A stretch of 64,000 bases of DNA from positions 124,001 to 188,000 of the forward strand of contig NZ_QAJP01000004.1 in the NCBI RefSeq assembly GCF_003852535.1, given 5' to 3'. Within the stretch, counting starts at the first letter, position 1; each line of letters starts with the position of its first letter. Under the pieces are notes generated by a model that was given only the letters and a program-made list of their open reading frames with translations, made no database searches and was not told the origin of the DNA. This document shows positions 34,878 through 49,678 of this stretch, piece after piece. The position numbers and the translations under genes were made by a program. This DNA is from Herminiimonas sp. KBW02 (lineage in GTDB: Bacteria; Pseudomonadota; Gammaproteobacteria; Burkholderiales; Burkholderiaceae_D).

Positions 34878-36032
34878 ATGAGTTTGAATGTATTTTGGTT
34901 TTTGCCGACACATGGCGACAGCCGTTATCTGGGTACTTCCAAAGGTGCGCGTCAGGTTGATTTCGATTATCTGAAACAGGTCGCTGTATCGGCAGATACG
35001 CTGGGTTACGACGGCGTATTGCTGCCGACCGGCCGTTCGTGCGAAGACGCATGGGTGGCCGCATCAAGTCTGATCGGCGAAACCAAGAAACTGAAATTCC
35101 TGGTCGCGGTACGCCCGGGTTTGAGTACACCAGGTCTTGCCGTGCGCATGGCAGCTACTTTCGATCGTTTGTCGAAAGGCCGTTTGTTGATCAATGTCGT
35201 GACCGGTGGCGATCAGGCCGAACTGGAAGCGGATGGCTTGCATGCGAGTCATTCCGAGCGTTACGAAATCACCGATGAGTTTCTGAAAGTATGGCGCGCC
35301 TCCCTGTCGGGTGAGGGCGGTGATGCCGGCTACGATTTCGCAGGCAAACATATCCAGGTCAAGGGCGCAAAGACCTTGTACCCGCCAGTACAAAAACCAT
35401 ATCCGCCGCTGTACTTCGGCGGCTCGTCACCAGCAGCGCATGAATTGGCTGCAGAACAAGTCGATGTCTACCTGACCTGGGGTGAGCCACCAGCAGCAGT
35501 GGCAGAAAAAATTGCCGACATGCGTGCACGTGCCGCTAAACACGGCCGTACCCTGAAGTTCGGCATACGCCTGCACGTGATCGTGCGCGAAACCAATGAA
35601 GAGGCATGGAAAGCAGCTGATGAATTGATCAAGTACGTCGACGACGATCTGATCGCACGGGCGCAGGCTTCCTTCAACAAGATGGATTCGGAAGGCCAAC
35701 GCCGCATGGCTGCATTGCATGGCGGTAAAAGGGACAAGCTCGAAGTGTCGCCTAACCTGTGGGCCGGGGTAGGGCTGGTACGTGGTGGTGCAGGTACTGC
35801 ACTGGTGGGTGATCCGGAAACGGTGGCCGCACGTATGCAGGAATATGCAGACCTCGGTATCGAAACCTTCATCCTGTCCGGCTACCCGCATTTAGAGGAG
35901 TCCTATCGCTTTGCCGAATTGGTATTCCCATTGCTGGGAAAAGGCCGGGAACGTTCGGGTGAAGCGGTCTTGACCGGCCCATTCGGTGAGGTCATTTCCA
36001 ATGACATCCTGCCTAAAGTTTCACAGAGCTAA
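34878..36032 (+). CDS. ssuD: FMNH2-dependent alkanesulfonate monooxygenase
   Basis: This 384-residue enzyme of the bacterial luciferase-like family cleaves the C-S bond of alkanesulfonates to give sulfite and aldehyde. It begins with the typical [19 protein letters not shown], has the active-site Cys in GRSCEDAWV, and contains a conserved Arg in [12 protein letters not shown]. Length equals that of E. coli SsuD (381). It requires reduced flavin from SsuE. A GAAGGA ribosome site is present. Confidence 0.96.
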
Positions 36033-36041
36033 GGAATTCTG

Positions 36042-36872
36042 ATGAGTGCCGTTCTTCCCAACCTCGCAACCGGCAGCACTGCCGCAGCCAAGACACCGTC
36101 AACCTGGCGCGCCAGCGGTTTGAAAAAACTGGTGCCGTGGATAGTGCCTGTCCTGTTAATCAGTGTGTGGCAACTCGCTTCGCAAATTGGCTGGCTCTCC
36201 AGCCGCATCTTGCCGGAGCCGTTTGCCGTAGCGAAAGCAGCATGGGAGCTGGCACTGTCCGGAGAATTGTGGACCCACGTCAAGGTCAGCCTGTGGCGTG
36301 CGACTACCAGCTTCGCGGTAGGCGGCGGGCTGGGCTTGTTGCTGGGTCTGTTGACTGGCACCTTCAAGACCGCAGAGACCTTGCTGGATACCACTTTGCA
36401 GATGATTCGCAATATTCCGGCGCTGGCACTGATTCCACTGGTGATCCTGTGGTTCGGTATCGAAGAAACTTCGAAGATTTTCCTGGTCGCGGTGGGGGTG
36501 TTCTTCCCGGTATATCTGAACACCTTCCACGGCATACGATCGGTCGATAAAGGCCTGATCGAGATGGCGAAGAGCTATGGCTTGTCGGGCTGGTCGCTGT
36601 ATCGCGATGTGATTTTGCCTGGTGCCTTGCCTTCGATATTGGTGGGTGTGCGTTTCTCGCTGGGTCTCGTATGGGTTCTATTGATTGTGGCGGAGACGAT
36701 CTCGGCGCAATCCGGTATCGGTTACATGACGATGAATGCACGTGAGTTCCTGCAAACCGACATCGTACTGGTGGGCATCCTGCTGTATGCATTGCTCGGC
36801 AAGCTGGCTGACGTGGTATCACGCACGCTGGAGGGTTACTGGTTGCGCTGGCATCCCGGTTACCGTCATTAA
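36042..36872 (+). CDS. ssuC: Aliphatic sulfonate ABC transporter permease
   Basis: This 276-residue protein has about six hydrophobic segments of the BPD-transporter permease fold. The EAA loop region reads [29 protein letters not shown], and the conserved [11 protein letters not shown] precedes it. It is located between ssuD and ssuB. Nine bases separate it from ssuD. Confidence 0.95.
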
Positions 36873-36886
36873 GAATGAGACAGGTT

Positions 36887-37720
36887 ATGCACATTAATCA
36901 AACAGAACAGCAAGTATTGTCTGCTACGCCCGATGCGCGACGTGGCATACGCGTCGCGGTTGAGAGCCTGTACAAATCCTATAGCGGTCGTGAAGTACTG
37001 AAAGCGATCGAACTGACATTGGAACCCGGTGAATTTGTCGCCGTGGTTGGCCGCAGTGGCTGCGGTAAAAGCACCTTGCTGCGCCTGGTGGCGGAACTGG
37101 AAACCGCAGACAGCGGCACGCTGACCTTTGGCGACGGCAAGACGCCGCCGGAAACACGCATCATGTTCCAGGACTCGCGCCTGTTGCCATGGAAGCGTGT
37201 GCTCGATAACGTCGCGCTCGGTTTGCCGAAGAAGGATGATGCACTGCAAGCCTTGCGCCAGGTCGGTCTGGAAGAACGTGCCGGCGAATGGCCAGCTGTC
37301 CTGTCCGGCGGTCAGCGTCAGCGCGTGGCGCTGGCACGTGCGCTGGTGCATGACCCTGAATTGTTATTGCTGGATGAGCCGCTCGGTGCACTCGATGCAC
37401 TGACGCGTATCGAGATGCAGCAGTTGATCGAAACCTTATGGCAAAAGCGCGGCTTTACCGCCTTGCTGGTCACGCACGATGTACAGGAAGCGATTGCATT
37501 GGCGGATCGTGTTGTCCTGATCGAGGATGGCCGTATCACGCTGGATGAACGCATACCACTGGCACGGCCACGTGCGCGCGGCAATGCCACTTTTGCGCAA
37601 CTGGAAGAAAGAATCCTGGCGCATGTATTGCAGATTCCACCTTCCGCTGACGCTGATGATTCTTCCCTGGGCGATGTGTCACTGCTGAAAACAGTGAACC
37701 AGTTTGCCTGGGCTGTTTAA
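36887..37720 (+). CDS. ssuB: Aliphatic sulfonate ABC transporter ATP-binding protein
   Basis: This 277-residue ATPase has Walker A ([13 protein letters not shown]), signature [15 protein letters not shown], Walker B ([12 protein letters not shown]) and H-loop ([14 protein letters not shown]). It energises sulfonate import through SsuC. An ATG at 36875, three bases after the ssuC stop, is an alternative start; I prefer 36887, which has GAGA six bases upstream. Confidence 0.94.
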
Positions 37721-40039: not shown

Positions 40040-40972
40040 CTACATCCCGATCGTGGTTTTCTTAATCTTGAATGTGTTGCGGCAACGCGGATAGTTCAGG
40101 CATTTCCAGAAGTGATTATTCTGGTGTTCCTTCACGATCATCTTGATTCCGCAAGAAGGACAGCTAGGCGTTCTGTAGTCACCACTGAAAGCAAACTTTG
40201 CGAGTGCATCCTGGTGCGTGCTGTCGAGTTGCAGTATGCGTTGCAGGAAAGCTTCGCCATCCAGTAGCTGAATAGGATTGCTGCTACCGAATTCCAGTGC
40301 CTCGCTGGTATAGCTACCGCTGGTGATGAAGATGCCTCGTTCCACTTTCTCGTGCACCATGACACCGAGCAGTTCGCGCAATTCCCTGACGCCGTTTGCT
40401 TTGCTGTTCCATGCCTTGCATTGAACGATGGCGATAGGATGTGTGAGGTCGGAACGGTAGAGGCGCACATCGATACCGCCATCAGGACCGCTGGCTTGCG
40501 TGACTGCCTTGAAGTTCAGCGTTTCATAATATTTTGCGCATAGCAGCTCGAAGCGCTTCCATTCCAGCGACCGTAAAGAACTCAGGCTCCATGCGGGGAT
40601 GACGGCTGTGTCACCGGTTTGATGTAACGATGATGCCTGTGCGTGATTACCCCATGCCTGGTCAAGCGCAGAGACAGGTATCGGTTTCTGTCTGGAAGCC
40701 GTGGGTTCTTTGCGTGGGCGCTGTTCCGTTCTGACGGCGGTCTTTTTTTTGCCGATAAAAGCAATAAATGCGATCAGTCCGAATATCGGAAACGCCAGCC
40801 ACGCCAGTGATTGCGATAAGCGGGATAAGCTGACAAGAATAGGGTTACCTGCGAATAGCGCAGGAATAATCCAGCGCAGGAAAAAATATACGCCTACGCC
40901 CATCACGGCACTGACCCACCATGGCGATGCAAGCAAATTCTCCAGACCGGATTTTCTTTTGTGCCTGCGCAT
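40040..40972 (-). CDS. Membrane-anchored Mrr-like restriction endonuclease with zinc ribbon
   Basis: This 310-residue protein has two hydrophobic segments near the N-terminus (about 18-40 and 54-73), then an Mrr-cat nuclease domain with GPDGGIDVRLYRSDLTHPI and IVQCKAW (catalytic D168 and Q184-x-K186). A C-terminal topoisomerase-type zinc ribbon (CPSCG...CLNYPRC) follows. Such proteins are annotated as Mrr-like type IV restriction enzymes; a role in cleaving modified or stalled DNA is inferred. The ATG at 40972 is favoured over 41047. No modification gene is nearby. Confidence 0.85.
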   Translation of the reverse strand: MRRHKRKSGLENLLASPWWVSAVMGVGVYFFLRWIIPALFAGNPILVSLSRLSQSLAWLAFPIFGLIAFIAFIGKKKTAVRTEQRPRKEPTASRQKPIPVSALDQAWGNHAQASSLHQTGDTAVIPAWSLSSLRSLEWKRFELLCAKYYETLNFKAVTQASGPDGGIDVRLYRSDLTHPIAIVQCKAWNSKANGVRELRELLGVMVHEKVERGIFITSGSYTSEALEFGSSNPIQLLDGEAFLQRILQLDSTHQDALAKFAFSGDYRTPSCPSCGIKMIVKEHQNNHFWKCLNYPRCRNTFKIKKTTIGM

Positions 40973-41076
40973 TGCTGGGTATTGCCCGCATCTCAGATTA
41001 TGGAAGTGCGTCATTACACGCCAGAATCCTGTTTTTGGGCATCCCATAGGTATGGGATAGTGTGTACAGCTGTAAA

Positions 41077-41147: not shown

Positions 41148-42275
41148 TCAGGCCATGCTATCCAGAGCTTTGGACAGATTGGCTACCGTGCGCTCGATGT
41201 TGTGCAGCTTGTCGAGGCCGAACAGGCCGACGCGGAAGGATTTGAAGTCTGGACGTTCATCGCACTGCAATGGCACGCCAGCTGCGGTTTGCAAACCGGC
41301 TGCAACAAATTTCTTGGCCGACTGGATGCCGTCGTCATTGGTGTAGCTGACGACTACACCTGGCGCCTGGAAGCCTTCGGCTGCCACGCTCTTGTAGCCT
41401 TTGGAGACCAGCAGGGCGCGCACTTTGTCGCCCAGTTCCTGTTGCTCGGCACGGACTTTGTCGAAGCCATAAGCTGCGGTTTCTTCCATCACGCCACGCA
41501 GGATGGTGAGTGCGTCGGTCGGCATGGTGGTGTGGTAAGCCACTGCACCTTGCTCGTACGATTCCATGATTTGCAGCCATTTGCGCAGGTCGCAAGCAAA
41601 GCTGGTGCTTTGTGTGGATTCGATTTTTTCGCGGGCCAGGGCGCTCAGCATCACGAAGGCACAACCGGCGGAAGCGCTCCAGCCTTTTTGCGGCGCGCTG
41701 ATGAGGATATCGACGCCGGTCGCTTGCATGTCGACCCAGATAGTGCCGGAAGCGATGCAGTCGAGGACGAACAAGCCGCCTACCGAATGCACTGCATCCG
41801 AAACCTGACGCAGGTAGTCGTCCGGCAGCATGATGCCGGAAGCGGTTTCTACGTGTGGTGCAAACACGACCGCAGGTTTGATTTCTTTAATGGTCGCGAC
41901 GACTTCAGCGATAGGCGCAGGTGCGAATGGTGCTTGTGCCGAGTCTTCCAGCTGACGTGCTTTCAATACCGTGGTCGCGGCAGGAATGCTGCCGGTGTCC
42001 AGGATTTGGGTCCAGCGATAGCTGAACCAGCCGTTGCGCAGGATCAGGCATTGCTGCTTGGTTGCGAACTGACGGGCAACCGCTTCCATGCCGAAGGTAC
42101 CGCTACCTGGCATGACGATGGCGGATTGCGCCTTGTAGACATGTTTTAAAGTCTTGGAAATGTCACGCATGACGCCCTGGAAGCGTTCGGACATGTGATT
42201 GATCGCACGATCTGTGTAGACGACGGAGTATTCAAGAAGACCGTCGGGATCGACGTTGGGTAAGAGACCTGGCAC
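41148..42275 (-). CDS. Class V aminotransferase, alanine/serine-glyoxylate type
   Basis: This 375-residue PLP enzyme of the AGXT/SgaA group has the PLP lysine in ISAPQKGWSASAG and the PLP-anchoring region VLDCIASGTIWVDM. The opening MPGSGTFGMEAVAR binds phosphate. It interconverts glyoxylate, pyruvate, serine, alanine or glycine; the exact pair is uncertain. The start is a GTG with GGAG seven bases upstream. The gene downstream of the formyltransferase-ACT gene on the same strand, it may share one-carbon/glycine metabolism. Confidence 0.88.
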   Translation of the reverse strand: MPGLLPNVDPDGLLEYSVVYTDRAINHMSERFQGVMRDISKTLKHVYKAQSAIVMPGSGTFGMEAVARQFATKQQCLILRNGWFSYRWTQILDTGSIPAATTVLKARQLEDSAQAPFAPAPIAEVVATIKEIKPAVVFAPHVETASGIMLPDDYLRQVSDAVHSVGGLFVLDCIASGTIWVDMQATGVDILISAPQKGWSASAGCAFVMLSALAREKIESTQSTSFACDLRKWLQIMESYEQGAVAYHTTMPTDALTILRGVMEETAAYGFDKVRAEQQELGDKVRALLVSKGYKSVAAEGFQAPGVVVSYTNDDGIQSAKKFVAAGLQTAAGVPLQCDERPDFKSFRVGLFGLDKLHNIERTVANLSKALDSMA

Positions 42276-42473: not shown

Positions 42474-43625
42474 TTAGGCTGCCGGCTTCTCACCGAGGGC
42501 GATATCGACCGTCATCTCATGGGCCAGTGCGCCCAGTTCCTGACGCAGCTCATCGATGGACAGCTTGCCCGGAACCAGCAGGTGCGCGCCGATTTTGAAG
42601 GTTTGCTTGCCGGAGACGCCGCTACGGGTGATTTCGGTGTGTATGCTTTCGATGCTGATATTGCGCTCGGCCAGCATCCTGGTCAGGCTGCTGACGATGC
42701 CGACGCGGTCATCGCCGACCAGTTCGAGTTCGACGCTCTTGATCGAATCGGACAGATTTGCGCCATCGCTCTTCGCCACGACCACTTGCAGGCCACTGGA
42801 ATCCAGGCTGCGCAATGCATTGGTCAATGCATCAGCGTTTTCACGTGGTACATCGAAGTGCACCATGCCGGCGAATTCACCTGCCAGGCGTGTCATGCGG
42901 CTGGCGGCCCAGTTGGCGCCGTACCGTTCTGCACGTTCGGCCAGTGAGCGCACGATGCCGTGGCGGTCGGTGCCGACGATGGAAACGATGAGGGCGACGG
43001 TGTTGGACTCGACTTCTTCTGCCAGCACTACCGAGCGACGGATCATCGGTGCCTTGGTGGCGAAGCGCTGGTCTTGCTCAAACGCTGGCAGAGCGCCGTG
43101 TTCCGCTGCGTAGTGAATGACCTGGCTCAGCAGTTTCAGGCCCATAGGTGCGAGTGCACGCTCCCACAGTTCCCGTGCGCTTTCGCCTTTTTCAACGAAG
43201 CACCAGTCTTGCGCGGCAATCGCACCGGCATCCCAACCGTCGGCCAGATGATAGATGGAGCCGCCGGCGATAGGGTCGCCTTCAAGGATGGTCCATTCAA
43301 CTGCAGCAATGCCACGGTGTCTAGGCAACAGGGATGGGTGATAACCGATACCGCCGAGGCGTGCGCGCGCCAATGCTTCATCGCTGACGCGGGCATGGGT
43401 GTGAGCGGCGAGGATGACGTCGGTGCCTTCGGCGATGGCTTCACCTGGCACGAAGCGCGGGTTTTCCATCACATGTAGCGGTACACCGGCTGCACGGGCA
43501 GCTTGTGCCAGGCGATCATCTTCCGACGGCGCGACCACGCTGGTGAATTCGATACCTTCTTCCTTGCGCAGCGTCTCAAATACCAAGGCGCCGAAATAGC
43601 GCGAACCTACCAAAGCACATTTCAT
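42474..43625 (-). CDS. Formyltransferase domain fused to two C-terminal ACT domains
   Basis: The N-terminal ~200 residues of this 383-residue protein are a formyl-transferase fold of the Fmt/PurN/PurU type: VGSRYFGALVFETL, the active-site loop IGYHPSLLPRHRG, and WDAGAIAAQDW. The catalytic His96 and Asp132 are present, but the Asn two residues before His is Gly94. The remainder holds two ACT domains (about 211-290 and 300-375; VSIVGTDRHGIVRSLAE and LELVGDDRVGIVSSLTRML) as in GcvR or PurU. PurU has ACT first, so the order is reversed here. Substrate is unknown. Confidence 0.88.
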   Translation of the reverse strand: MKCALVGSRYFGALVFETLRKEEGIEFTSVVAPSEDDRLAQAARAAGVPLHVMENPRFVPGEAIAEGTDVILAAHTHARVSDEALARARLGGIGYHPSLLPRHRGIAAVEWTILEGDPIAGGSIYHLADGWDAGAIAAQDWCFVEKGESARELWERALAPMGLKLLSQVIHYAAEHGALPAFEQDQRFATKAPMIRRSVVLAEEVESNTVALIVSIVGTDRHGIVRSLAERAERYGANWAASRMTRLAGEFAGMVHFDVPRENADALTNALRSLDSSGLQVVVAKSDGANLSDSIKSVELELVGDDRVGIVSSLTRMLAERNISIESIHTEITRSGVSGKQTFKIGAHLLVPGKLSIDELRQELGALAHEMTVDIALGEKPAA

Positions 43626-43857: not shown

Positions 43858-44769
43858 TTACGATTTTTTCCCTTTATTAAACGACGCCACAGGCTCACGT
43901 GCCTGCGCAATAAAGGCTTGCAGATAATCGGTATCGAGGTCAGCTTCGCGGGCGCCGAGGAAAATCTGTTTGGCGATACCGTCCGCTCCCAGGCGCACTG
44001 GGACCACGTCCATTTTGCTGGCATATTCCTGCACCAGCCAGCGTGGCAATGCCGCTACACCGCGCCCGCTGGCCACCATTTGCAACATGATGTCGGTGGT
44101 CTCTATGGTTTTGTGACGTTTTGGTGTGATTCCCGCAGGCAGCAGGAACTGGTTGTAGATGTCGAGACGGTCGGTGGCCACCGGATACGTGATCAGGACT
44201 TCATTCATCAACTGTTCCGGTTCGACATATTTCACTTTGGCCAGCACATGGTTACGCGGCACGACCAGCACTTGCTCATAGTCGAACACGGGTTCGAAGC
44301 GCAGGCCGGGTTTGTACAGCGGGTCTGGTGTGACCAGCAAATCGATTTCATATGCAAACAAGGCGCCGATGCCGCCGAACTGGAATTTCTGTTTCACGTC
44401 GACATCGACATCAGGCCAGGCTGTCAGGTAAGGCGACACTACTTTCAGCAGCCATTGATAGCAGGGATGGCATTCCATGCCTATGCGCAAGGCACCGCGT
44501 TCGCCTTGAGAAAACTGGCGCAGCCGTTCTTCGGCCAGCGTCAGTTGCGGCAGTACGCGATTGGCGACCGCCAGCAAATATTGCCCCGCTTGCGTCAGGC
44601 GCAGCGCACGTCCTTCGCGCACCCAGATGTCAGTGCCGAGTTGCTGCTCCAGTTTCTTCATGCTGTGACTCAGCGCAGATTGCGTGACGTGCAGCACGTT
44701 GGCGGCCCCGGTCAGGGAGCCTTGCTTTTCTACTTCGAGGACGACGGCGAGGTGGATGCGCTCTAACAT
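43858..44769 (-). CDS. metR: LysR-family regulator of methionine synthesis
   Basis: This 303-residue LysR protein has an N-terminal winged helix (GSLTGAANVLHVTQSALSHSMKKLEQQLG) and a C-terminal periplasmic-binding-like effector domain with the MetR-type opening GALRIGMECHPCYQWLLKV. It is divergent from metE, and a MetR-box-like site lies between them. It is expected to activate metE with homocysteine as coregulator. Confidence 0.92.
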   Translation of the reverse strand: MLERIHLAVVLEVEKQGSLTGAANVLHVTQSALSHSMKKLEQQLGTDIWVREGRALRLTQAGQYLLAVANRVLPQLTLAEERLRQFSQGERGALRIGMECHPCYQWLLKVVSPYLTAWPDVDVDVKQKFQFGGIGALFAYEIDLLVTPDPLYKPGLRFEPVFDYEQVLVVPRNHVLAKVKYVEPEQLMNEVLITYPVATDRLDIYNQFLLPAGITPKRHKTIETTDIMLQMVASGRGVAALPRWLVQEYASKMDVVPVRLGADGIAKQIFLGAREADLDTDYLQAFIAQAREPVASFNKGKKS

Positions 44770-44786
44770 GGGCTTAATTCAATGCA

Positions 44787-44799
44787 TGAGTAAAATTCA
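44787..44799. promoter_or_regulatory. MetR-box-like operator between metR and metE
   Basis: TGAGTAAAATTCA differs from the TGAA-N5-TTCA MetR consensus at one base. A GATAAT hexamer at 44811-44816 is a candidate -10 for metE, placing the box where a LysR activator would touch RNA polymerase. Confidence 0.6.
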
Positions 44800-44877
44800 T
44801 GTATGTCTGAGATAATACCATTTTACTTCATGGATTGCGCGTCCTATTATTCTCGTTCTTGTTTTCTGGAGCGAACC

Positions 44878-47169
44878 ATGACCACCATACACAACCTCGG
44901 CTTTCCCCGTATCGGCGCAAAGCGTGAATTGAAATTTGCACTCGAATCCTACTGGAAGGGCGAGTCCTCGCGCGACGCCCTGAAAGACCTGGGTGCACAA
45001 CTGCGCAAACGCCACTGGGATAACCAGGTCGGTCTGGATCTGGTGCCGGTCGGCGACTTTGCGTTCTACGATCAAATGCTCGACATGAGCTTCACCCTGG
45101 GCAACCTGCCTGAACGCGTGCGCGGTTTCCACGGCGACGCGCTGGACAATTACTTCCGTGTTGCGCGTGGCCGTTCGGCGCAGGGTGCAGAAGACCATAG
45201 CGCATGCTGTGGCGGTGTCGCGGCTGGCGAAATGACCAAGTGGTTCGATACCAACTACCACTACATCGTGCCTGAGTTCACAGCTGCAACCGAATTCAAA
45301 CTCGACACTACTCGTCTGCTGGAACAACTGGCAGAAGCCAAAGCGCAAGGCGTAAAAGCCAAGCCGGTCATCATCGGCCCTATTACTTACCTGGCGCAAG
45401 GCAAGGCCAAGGATGATTTGTACAAACTGGCTTTGTTGCCGCGTTTGTTGCCCGTGTACGCACAATTGCTGGATGCGCTCGCGGCACAAGGTGTGGAATG
45501 GGTACAGATAGACGAACCTATCCTCGTCACTGAACTGGATACCGATTGGCAAAATGCTTTCAAAGCCGCCTACGAGCAACTGAAAAATAGTCGCGTCAAA
45601 TTGTTGCTGGCAACTTACTTTGGTCAATTGCTGGAAAACCGCACACTGGCCGCCAGCCTGCCGGTAGCAGGTTTGCACGTCGATGCGATCAATGGTCGTG
45701 ATGATGTATTGCCGCTGATCGATTTGCTGGCTGCTGACAAGGTGTTGTCGCTGGGCGTGATTAACGGTCGCAACATCTGGAAAACCGATCTGACTGCGGT
45801 ACTGGATTGGGTTGAGCCATTGGCGCAGCGTCTGGGCGACCGCCTGTGGGTCGCACCGTCGTGCTCCCTGTTGCACGTGCCGGTCGATCTGAACAGCGAA
45901 CAAAAACTGGATACAGAGATCAAGTCCTGGCTCGCCTACGCGATTCAGAAGCTGGATGAATTGCGCGTGCTGGGTAAAGCATTGCGCACTGGTCGTGATT
46001 CGGTGAAAGCCGAGCTGGCTGAGAACAAGGCAGCGCTGGCAGCACGCCGTGCGTCGCCACGTGTCAACAATCCGACAGTGCAGGCAGCGATTGCGAAGAT
46101 TGATGCAGGCCTGGGCAAACGTGACAGCACTTATGCGCTGCGTGCGAAGAAACAGGCAGCCTTGCTGAAATTGCCTGCTTACCCGACCACGACTATCGGT
46201 TCCTTCCCGCAAACCGCTGAAATCCGTCACGCCCGCAGCGAATTCAAGGCTGGCCGTCTGGATGATGCGAGCTACAAGACTGCGATGCAGGCTGAGATCG
46301 AACGCAGTGTGCGCGAACAGGAAGCACTGGGCCTGGACGTGCTGGTGCACGGTGAAGCAGAGCGTAACGACATGGTCGAATACTTTGGCGAACAACTGCA
46401 AGGCTACGCCTTCAGCCAGTTCGGCTGGGTCCAGTCCTATGGTTCGCGTTGCGTGAAACCGCCTATCCTGTTCGGCGACATCAGCCGTCCGCAAGCGATG
46501 ACCGTCGAGTGGAGCACCTATGCACAATCGCTGACCGAGAAGCCGATGAAAGGCATGCTCACCGGTCCGGTCACCATGTTGAACTGGTCCTTCGTGCGTG
46601 ACGATCAGCCGCGTTCGGTATCGTGCAAACAACTGGCGCTGGCGATCCGTGACGAAGTGCTGGATCTGGAAAAAGCTGGTGTGCATGTGATCCAGATTGA
46701 TGAAGCTGCATTGCGCGAAGGTTTGCCACTGCGCAAGTCGCAATGGCAGGATTACCTGGACTGGGCGGTGGAGTCGTTCCGCATTACTGCAAATGGCGTG
46801 GAAGATGAAACCCAGATCCATACCCATATGTGCTATTCGGAGTTCAACGACATCATCGCGTCTATCGCCGATATGGATGCCGACGTGATCACCATCGAAA
46901 CATCGCGTTCAGATATGGAGTTGCTCGATGCATTCGACAACTTCAACTACCCGAACGAGATTGGACCTGGTGTTTATGACATCCACTCGCCGAATATTCC
47001 GACCCAGGAGCACATGGTGCAACTGATGAAGAAAGCGGCAGAGCGCGTCCCGGCAGAGCGCCTGTGGGTGAATCCCGACTGTGGCCTGAAAACCCGTCAA
47101 TGGGCCGAAGTGTTGCCGGCACTGAATAACATGGTGGCAGCAGCGAAGACGTTGCGCGCAGCAGCATGA
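44878..47169 (+). CDS. metE: Cobalamin-independent methionine synthase
   Basis: This 763-residue zinc enzyme transfers methyl from 5-methyltetrahydrofolate (polyglutamate) to homocysteine. It starts [13 protein letters not shown]. The C-terminal domain holds zinc ligands in [11 protein letters not shown] (His and Cys), ITIETSRSD (Glu) and NPDCGLKTR (Cys). The ATG at 44878 follows TGGAG; the frame is open upstream to 44803 through the promoter. It is expressed under MetR control by inference. A terminator follows. Confidence 0.97.
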
Positions 47170-48868: not shown

Positions 48869-49678
48869 ATGACCACCATTACCGTCAACGAAGACCTGAA
48901 AGCCTATATCGATCCATTGACCAGCGACGAATATGCGGCGCTGGAACGCAGCCTGCTGGCGGAAGGTTGCCGTGATGCGCTGGTGTTGTGGGGCGACTTG
49001 CTGATCGACGGTCATAATCGTTACGGTATCTGCCAGAAACACGGCATTCCCTTCAACACGAGACAGAACGAAACCTTCAAGTCGATGGCCGATGTTCATC
49101 TGTGGATGATAGACAATCATCTGGGACGCCGCAGCGTGTCTGACTTCCAGCGCGGCATACTGGCGTTGCGCAAGAAGGAGATACTGTCGACGCGTGTGGC
49201 ACAAGTAAAAGAAAGCACTCCTGCCGAAGCAGATGCTGAAGCCAGCACCGCAAGCATAGCCGAGCCGACCTTGAAACGTGATGTCATCGCCAAGGAAGCA
49301 CGTATCAGCAGCGTGACGCTGGGCCAGATCGAAAAAATCCAAAAGACCGCAACACCGGAACTGGTGCATGCGGTAAAGACAGGCGTGGTGTCGATTAATG
49401 CCGCCGCCGCGATTTCTTCGCTGCCGGAAGAGAAGCAGAAAGAAGCAGTCGCCGGTGGCAAGAAGGAGTTACGTCAGGCTGCGCGCCAGGTACGTGAAGC
49501 AAAACTGCCGCCTAAGCCTGAGCCGGTACCACCGCCAGACGATGCGACACCGGATCAAATCACCATCCATAAACTGAACCTGAAAATCGCTGAGTTGAAC
49601 GAAGAGCGCGATCAGTTGAAAAAGAAAGTGCAACACTTGACGATCGCCCTTGCGGAAGCACGTGACGCGTCGCGATAA
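48869..49678 (+). CDS. Orphan ParB-like nuclease-domain protein
   Basis: This 269-residue protein opens with a ParB/Srx-like N-terminal domain (ALVLWGDLLIDGHNRYGICQKHGIPF) with conserved His-Asn-Arg. A middle helical part has the Ala/Glu-rich AEADAEASTASIAE and a possible DNA-binding helix (IAKEARISSVTLGQIEKIQ). It ends in a coiled coil (about 230-265, LNLKIAELNEERDQLKKKV). No parA lies nearby, and a chromosomal partition role is unlikely. It may be a phage- or plasmid-derived regulator. Confidence 0.8.
   Translation: MTTITVNEDLKAYIDPLTSDEYAALERSLLAEGCRDALVLWGDLLIDGHNRYGICQKHGIPFNTRQNETFKSMADVHLWMIDNHLGRRSVSDFQRGILALRKKEILSTRVAQVKESTPAEADAEASTASIAEPTLKRDVIAKEARISSVTLGQIEKIQKTATPELVHAVKTGVVSINAAAAISSLPEEKQKEAVAGGKKELRQAARQVREAKLPPKPEPVPPPDDATPDQITIHKLNLKIAELNEERDQLKKKVQHLTIALAEARDASR

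What the first reader, a model, noticed from the sequence alone, without database searches (positions are those of the whole stretch)
42474..43625. Inverted PurU: formyltransferase followed by two ACT domains, with catalytic Asn changed to Gly
PurU carries ACT first and formyltransferase second. Here the order is reversed and there are two ACT domains of GcvR type. The active-site loop has His96 and the later Asp132, but the Asn two residues before His, needed in Fmt, PurN and PurU, is Gly94. The neighbour is a glyoxylate-type aminotransferase. It may be an amino-acid-regulated formyl hydrolase or a formyl-donor sensor rather than a classical transferase.
Basis: partly seen in the sequence, partly recalled or inferred. 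Interest (0 to 1): 0.7.

Follow-up and report, generated by a model that had tools for sequence, protein, structure and literature searches.

The report
Formyltransferase fused to two ACT domains
A bacterium carries an uncharacterised enzyme that joins a formyl-folate-handling half to two amino-acid-sensing domains, an arrangement that looks new but whose odd active-site residue is normal for its branch of the family, a branch that also turns up in phages beside a DNA-modification-like gene set.

Summary
ORF 42474-43625 (-) encodes 383 aa: Formyl_trans_N (10-168), then two GcvR-type ACT domains. Gly94, His96, Ser98 and Asp132 are invariant in the 81 of 81 fusions examined; 128 further relatives were not fetched.

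The 'inverted PurU' reading fails. The formyltransferase half belongs to a clade with Gly (rarely Ala) at this site, sister to the FDH/ALDH1L1 hydrolase lineage. FDH has Ile there, so loss of Asn is a lineage trait and does not imply a dead enzyme (PMC4388273). PurU coexists in 28 of 34 fusion genomes tested.

Best reading: an amino-acid-gated enzyme that removes formyl from 10-formyl-THF, probably a hydrolase. A specific acceptor is the main rival. A dead sensor is unlikely. The aminotransferase next door is recurrent but not obligate (23 of 80 loci, two gene orders).

Unexpected: relatives form a phage gene set, Com - ATPase/GNAT - formyltransferase; the middle gene adjoins the formyltransferase in 21 of 21 viral loci found.

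The parts
42474..43625 (-). Fusion protein, 383 aa: formyltransferase half followed by two ACT domains
   Evidence: ORF; Pfam; 81 members examined
43026..43625 (-). Formyltransferase half, residues 1-200: Gly94, His96, Ser98, Arg104, Asp132 of the AHTHARV...GGIGYHPSLLPRHRG...GWDAG motifs
   Evidence: Formyl_trans_N 10-168; PHROG 9240 1-192, 146.9 bits; motif conservation
42780..42992 (-). First ACT domain, residues 212-282, DRHGIV loop motif at 220-225
   Evidence: ACT_6; D220 81/81, R221 80/81, G223 80/81
42567..42734 (-). Second ACT domain core, residues 298-353, DDRVGIV motif at 305-311
   Evidence: ACT_4/ACT; D306 81/81, G309, I310 and V311 80/81 each
41148..42275 (-). Class V (serine-pyruvate-like) aminotransferase, same strand, 198 bp downstream of the fusion stop; recurrent neighbour
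   Evidence: Pfam Aminotran_5; 3ke3 E 6e-143; adjacent in 23 of 80 loci

Best explanation
A 10-formyl-tetrahydrofolate-using enzyme of the FDH (ALDH1L1) hydrolase lineage. It most likely splits 10-formyl-THF to THF and formate (water as acceptor) with the His96/Ser98/Asp132 set, and is gated by one or more small amino acids (glycine or serine are the first candidates) bound by the C-terminal ACT pair. It would act like PurU, balancing formyl-THF against THF, but it arose independently: a small chromosomal formyltransferase of the 'Gly clade' gained a GcvR-like ACT pair, most simply once. Shown: domain order, conservation, lineage, one clade of fusions in the trees made, coexistence with PurU. 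Inferred: substrate, reaction, ligand, direction of regulation.
For: Nearest solved sequences are the FDH hydrolase domains (4qpc E 5.8e-22), and FDH is the best formyltransferase match of the model by Foldseek (E 2.5e-15). Catalytic residues are invariant in 81 of 81. FDH, which has Ile at this site, hydrolyses 10-formyl-THF; Ile104 to Ala leaves about 50% and to Asn under 10% of the activity (PMC4388273 section 15), so a small non-Asn residue is compatible with hydrolysis. The Gly clade (100/99) is sister to FDH plus FDH-like proteins (96/92; joint node 94/91). The fusions form one clade (95/97) inside a group with ACT-less chromosomal proteins (100/100). ACT loop motifs are kept and the ACT half matches a putative GcvR and another two-ACT protein. 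Outside the aminotransferase pairing I saw no recurrent partner: in the 45 largest neighbour clusters printed, or in 25 of the 57 non-adjacent loci listed by eye. That suits a metabolic balancer without a dedicated pathway.
Against: 28 of 34 fusion genomes tested already have PurU, so a second deformylase would be partly redundant. Phage relatives in the same clade sit beside an ATPase/GNAT protein, where transfer makes more sense than hydrolysis. The loop that carries FDH Phe89 differs here: Arg79 in 78 of 81, with a His77 in 81 of 81. The nearest relatives lack the ACT pair, so the reaction does not need it. No activity or ligand was tested. The model is of low confidence in the ACT half and in part of the active-site loop (101-110, mean pLDDT 56).
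Confidence: 0.4

Rival explanations
1. A formyltransferase to a specific small acceptor, either a thiol (CoA or another pantetheine, as proposed for HypX and described for FDH's carrier arm) or an amine made by the neighbouring aminotransferase, with the ACT pair giving feedback control.
For: FDH hands its formyl to a 4'-phosphopantetheine thiol (PMC8748788 passages) and HypX is proposed to make formyl-CoA (PMC6802093 Discussion part 1). The clade has phage members beside an ATPase/GNAT protein in 21 of 21 viral loci found. The aminotransferase is adjacent in 23 of 80 loci in both gene orders. The fusion coexists with PurU in 28 of 34 genomes.
Against: No conserved acceptor-binding domain or pathway gene seen. 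Of 26 fusion genomes tested, all chosen because the aminotransferase is not adjacent, 14 lack it at E<=1e-20 and 12 have it elsewhere. Formyl_trans_C is absent, though PurN-sized proteins do without it.
Confidence: 0.33
2. A catalytically inert sensor of formyl-folate or amino acids that signals through the ACT pair.
For: Asn missing; GcvR-type ACT pairs are regulatory (general knowledge of E. coli GcvR, recalled).
Against: His, Ser and Asp of the catalytic set in 81 of 81; 61 of 71 invariant positions in the enzyme half, up to 8 of them by search selection; FDH with a non-Asn residue is active.
Confidence: 0.07
3. An inverted, rearranged PurU.
For: Same domain types, opposite order.
Against: 11.2 bits to the PurU model against a cut-off of 285.95; the tree separates PurN plus PurU from all other rows (100/100) and joins the fusion with FDH (one PurU row, very long branch, and the tree was rooted on PurN/PurU); true PurU coexists.
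Confidence: 0.02

Closest known systems
10-formyltetrahydrofolate dehydrogenase (FDH, ALDH1L1), N-terminal hydrolase domain
   Same: YHPSLLPRHRG motif, His/Ser/Asp set, no Asn two residues before His, nearest solved sequence and best formyltransferase fold match
   Different: Gly instead of Ile; no C-terminal OB-like subdomain, carrier or dehydrogenase domain; ACT pair instead
PHROG 9240 small formyltransferases (Mu-like and Gordonia phages) and their chromosomal ACT-less homologues
   Same: Same clade, Gly (or Ala) at the site, AHxH-type loop motif in most
   Different: About 200 aa with no ACT domains; the phage members examined are paired with an ATPase/GNAT protein
PurU, 10-formyl-THF deformylase
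   Same: Formyltransferase fold plus ACT regulation; likely same substrate
   Different: One ACT, placed first; Asn kept; different lineage
GcvR and other stand-alone tandem-ACT proteins
   Same: C-terminal half is a tandem ACT_6-type pair; stand-alone pairs about 50% identical exist (49% in L132; 51% in L131, whose matched stretch holds one stop)
   Different: Fused to an enzyme; 22.4 bits to the GcvR model, cut-off 267
HypX N-terminal domain
   Same: FDH-related formyl-THF domain, proposed to use a thiol acceptor (PMC6802093)
   Different: Fused to a crotonase-type domain; not among the 60 hits shown

Membership tests
PurU (TIGR00655) | Whole-protein score over the curated cut-off | tested here: not met
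   11.2 bits against 285.95
PurU (TIGR00655) | ACT first, formyltransferase second, Asn-x-His motif | tested here: not met
   Order reversed; Gly94 in 81 of 81
FDH hydrolase lineage | His106/Ser108/Asp142 set in HxSLLPxxxG context | tested here: met
   His96, Ser98, Asp132 in 81 of 81
FDH hydrolase lineage | Ile at the pre-His position and a C-terminal subdomain | tested here: not met
   Gly94; no Formyl_trans_C hit
FDH hydrolase lineage | 10-formyl-THF hydrolysis | not testable with these tools
   Needs an assay
Gly-clade formyltransferases (PHROG 9240) | Profile match and clade placement | tested here: met
   146.9 bits, E 1.2e-42; clade of 28 rows at 100/99
GcvR | Score over the curated GcvR cut-off, stand-alone two-ACT protein | tested here: not met
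   22.4 bits against 267
Tandem ACT_6-type regulatory pair | Two ACT domains with DRxGI loop | tested here: met
Tandem ACT_6-type regulatory pair | Amino-acid binding | not testable with these tools
   Needs a binding assay
Fmt (TIGR00460) | Score over the curated cut-off | tested here: not met
   63.8 bits against 201.5

The most novel reading that the evidence does not exclude
The Gly clade is a branch of formyl-THF enzymes that make a formyl thioester (for example formyl-CoA) instead of formylating amines. In Mu-like and Gordonia phages the adjacent ATPase/GNAT protein would use it to put a formyl-type group on DNA bases. In Burkholderiales the same chemistry was taken into core metabolism and placed under amino-acid control by an ACT pair.
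Probability: 0.12. Interest if true: 0.8.

Novelty: new variant of a known kind. Interest (0 to 1): 0.45.

Why it matters
If it is an ACT-gated formyl-THF hydrolase, bacteria evolved amino-acid control of the formyl-folate pool at least twice, from two branches of the formyltransferase fold and with opposite domain order. If it is a transferase, its acceptor is an unknown piece of one-carbon metabolism. The clade also contains a conserved phage gene pair next to a Com-type regulator, which points to an untested role of formyl-folate in phage DNA modification.

Tried and rejected
Frameshift or assembly artefact: rejected, since 80 of 80 kept loci match both halves. 'Inverted PurU': rejected. 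Gly94 as an oddity of this protein: rejected. PurU replacement: not supported, since PurU is present in 28 of 34 fusion genomes tested and absent in 6 (G003, G007, G339, G417, G795, G798; the completeness of the 23 genomes reached through loci is not given). Aminotransferase as obligate partner: rejected. Of 26 fusion genomes without adjacency, 14 lack it and 12 have it elsewhere, while 6 of 6 fusion-free genomes of the genus have it. Neighbour clustering over the 80 loci: among the 45 largest clusters printed I saw no other neighbour recurring across unrelated flanks; the rest are antisense or shadow frames, or synteny shared mostly within Polaromonas/Comamonadaceae-type contigs (this reading is mine). 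Contexts of the ACT-less homologues gave no pathway outside phages; two of the four plasmid records opened have no usable annotation. Plasmids: 0 of 154 matching records cover 80% of the fusion. A first script printed some loci on the wrong strand and was replaced. The second-look fold comparison was unavailable.

Sampling limits: the 80 loci are the best of 208 relatives, and each was found through one of two peptide patterns, so conservation at residues 1-8 and 137-143 is partly by selection and distant fusions may be missed.

Literature: eight searches. In the titles and abstract starts listed I saw no paper on a formyltransferase-ACT-ACT protein or on a phage Com-GNAT-formyltransferase gene set. 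The library lacks most subscription journals. Three papers were opened, in part: PMC4388273 (section 15 and passages), PMC6802093 (Discussion part 1 and passages), PMC8748788 (passages).

Full report
Observation. The ORF at 42474-43625 (-) is 383 aa. Pfam finds Formyl_trans_N at 10-168 and two ACT domains at 212-282 and about 298-353. The model (mean pLDDT 75.8, pTM 0.52; formyltransferase half mostly above 80, with 56 at 101-110 and 30 at 191-200; ACT half weaker) matches FDH hydrolase domains (4qpc, E 2.5e-15) and two-ACT proteins (2nyi, E 2.8e-16; 1u8s, a putative GcvR, E 2.4e-12) by Foldseek. By sequence the nearest solved proteins are FDH hydrolase domains (E 5.8e-22 to 9.6e-20) and then 2nyi (1.1e-13).

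The family. In the genus, 7 of 13 genomes (own included) carry the full fusion, 5 carry only an ACT-less relative of 39-43% identity, and 1 (G004, 90% complete) carries neither. In an even draw from the order, 4 of 399 genomes have a full-length fusion at E<=1e-25; from the class, only the own genome of 369 does at E<=1e-20. A scan of GTDB genomes gave 208 relatives, of which the best 80 were kept. Most carry Betaproteobacterial names (Herminiimonas, Noviherbaspirillum, Massilia, Polaromonas, Thiomonas, Paraburkholderia, Caballeronia, Rhodocyclaceae and others); one MAG is labelled Alphaproteobacteria (L125) and three only Proteobacteria or Pseudomonadota (L055, L089, L108). All 80 match both halves; three are cut by contig ends or frame (L064, L090, L094) but cover the active site. 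None of 154 matching plasmid records covers 80% of the fusion.

Active site. Over 81 sequences (80 loci plus window) Gly94, Tyr95, His96, Ser98, Arg104 and Asp132 never vary. Of 71 invariant positions, 61 lie in the formyltransferase half and 10 in the ACT half (columns with fewer than 70 letters were skipped). Caveat: the loci were found through the patterns MKCALVGS and AAQDWCF, so up to 8 of the 61 are favoured by selection; the catalytic positions are outside the patterns. Asp220 and Asp306 of the two ACT loops are invariant. Residue 79, which aligns without gaps with FDH Phe89, is Arg in 78 and Phe in 3 of 81. The loop has His77 in 81 of 81 fusions and in 17 of 17 sequences of a wider alignment, and His75 in 80 of 81 fusions. 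Two Ala-type phage members (L178, L179) lack His77.

Is the missing Asn odd? In the proteins whose motif I printed, Asn stands at this position in 13 of 13 that look like Fmt, ArnA-like, PurN or PurU, Gln in 5 of 5 bacterial FDH-like proteins, and Gly in 15 of 15 ACT-less relatives. In 21 viral relatives it is Gly in 18 and Ala in 3, and Gly in 8 of 8 further homologues. FDH has Ile there. PMC4388273 (section 15 read in full, other passages by search) states that the Asn of Fmt, ArnA and GART corresponds to Ile104 of FDH, and that changing Ile104 to Ala or Asn leaves about 50% or under 10% of hydrolase activity. So the substitution marks a lineage and does not mean a dead enzyme.

Lineage. A tree of 42 formyltransferase domains, rooted on one PurN and one PurU row, places 14 fusions, ACT-less and phage proteins in one clade (100/99), sister to FDH plus FDH-like proteins (96/92; joint node 94/91). 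PurN and PurU are split from all the rest at 100/100. PurU has a very long branch, so its own place is unsure. Its bootstrap had not fully settled, and many forks among the phage rows are open. The simplest history is one gain of the ACT pair. Stand-alone ACT pairs of about 50% identity to the C-terminal half exist in the same order (49% in L132; 51% in L131 with one stop in the match).

Relation to PurU and GcvR. The own genome has four Formyl_trans_N genes, one of them PurU. Among 34 fusion-bearing genomes tested, 28 have PurU at E<=1e-40 and 6 do not. In all 34 the strongest ACT_6 match lies in the fusion, judged by position or, for the 23 genomes reached through loci, by frame length (380-538 aa). 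The weaker matches fall in the fusion or in other frames, some of PurU and some of 850-1143 aa (reading the long frames as GlnD is mine).

Neighbours. The class V aminotransferase lies next to the fusion in 23 of 80 loci on the same strand: 10 with the fusion first, 13 with the aminotransferase first (several loci have short flanks, so this is a lower bound). Flanks beyond the pair mostly differ between genomes; L043 shares one further gene with the window (48869-49678, 85% identical). Of 26 fusion genomes without adjacency, 14 lack the aminotransferase at E<=1e-20 and 12 have it elsewhere; 6 of 6 fusion-free genomes of the genus have it. Its closest solved relative is 3ke3, deposited as a putative serine-pyruvate aminotransferase. 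It supports a link to serine/glyoxylate metabolism but is not a required partner.

Mechanism. Shown: conserved catalytic set, FDH lineage, tandem ACT with kept loop motifs, one clade of fusions, coexistence with PurU. Inferred: 10-formyl-THF as substrate, hydrolysis as the main reaction, glycine or serine as ligand. FDH in the full enzyme passes its formyl to a 4'-phosphopantetheine thiol (PMC8748788, passages) and HypX is proposed to pass it to CoA (PMC6802093, Discussion part 1). A thiol acceptor is therefore a serious rival to water.

Phage relatives. Formyltransferases of this clade in five genomes of the window's order (L133, L134, L135, L137, L138) sit directly after an ABC-ATPase/GNAT-like protein. 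In IMG/VR, 21 loci were found with one of them as query; all 21 have the ATPase/GNAT gene directly upstream, overlapping by a few bases in most, and 20 of 21 have a Com-like zinc-ribbon ORF before it (the Com matches are short, E 3.5e-15 to 1.4e-4). One Com-like protein passes the Pfam Zn_ribbon_Com cut-off. The GNAT domain passes a Pfam cut-off in L137 and is below it in the two phage records checked; the ABC_tran match passes in all three but is short. Of 55 phage records matched by this formyltransferase (15 covering at least 80% of it), two were opened. Pseudomonas phage Komp_PAO1_1, which has a Mu Gam-like gene, has the pair after its tail-fibre genes. Gordonia phage Sisko has ParB-like, ATPase and formyltransferase as genes 1-3 before the terminase. 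In phage Mu, Com activates translation of the DNA-modifying Mom (abstract start of PMC6483171 seen). I infer, not show, a DNA-modification role.

Novelty. The architecture is not covered by any NCBIfam model above its cut-off, and the four searches on it listed no title or abstract start that describes it. I rate it a new variant of a known kind. Mending these facts on a second check did not change my odds.

Noticed in passing
L159-L179 (viral contigs), L133-L135, L137, L138, L157, L158, L209: Conserved phage gene set: Com-like zinc ribbon, ABC-ATPase/GNAT protein (PHROG 11143, unknown function), formyltransferase (PHROG 9240). ATPase/GNAT beside the formyltransferase in 21 of 21 viral loci found, Com-like in 20 of 21.
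   Followed up: partly
L158:1-2464: Gordonia phage Sisko carries ParB-like, ATPase/GNAT-like and formyltransferase genes as its first three; the last is annotated 'tRNA-methyltransferase'.
   Followed up: partly
L177, L178, L179: Three viral formyltransferases have Ala instead of Gly at the Asn position; two of them (L178, L179) also lose the loop His77.
   Followed up: no
G000-G012 (genus of the window): The fusion (7 genomes) and an ACT-less relative (5 genomes) never occur together in the 13 genomes; G004 has neither.
   Followed up: partly
L206, L207, L208, L210, L211: A stand-alone chromosomal formyltransferase close to the fusion occurs in large genomes of another class of the phylum, without evident partner genes.
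   Followed up: partly
window 43858-47169: MetR-like LysR regulator (224.7 bits, below its cut-off of 382) divergent from metE (over cut-off), beside the fusion; neither was seen near the fusion in L042-L044.
   Followed up: partly
window 34878-37720: Alkanesulfonate monooxygenase SsuD (over cut-off) followed by genes that look like its ABC transporter (by eye).
   Followed up: no
window 40040-41047 (-): ORF that looks like an Mrr-type restriction endonuclease domain with a C-terminal zinc finger (by eye; no search run).
   Followed up: no
L058 downstream of the fusion: A tryptophanase-like ORF on the opposite strand next to the fusion in one MAG (by eye).
   Followed up: no
L212 (Delftia plasmid pKV29): An IncP conjugative plasmid carries a stand-alone formyltransferase of this clade beside a sterol-desaturase-family gene.
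   Followed up: no
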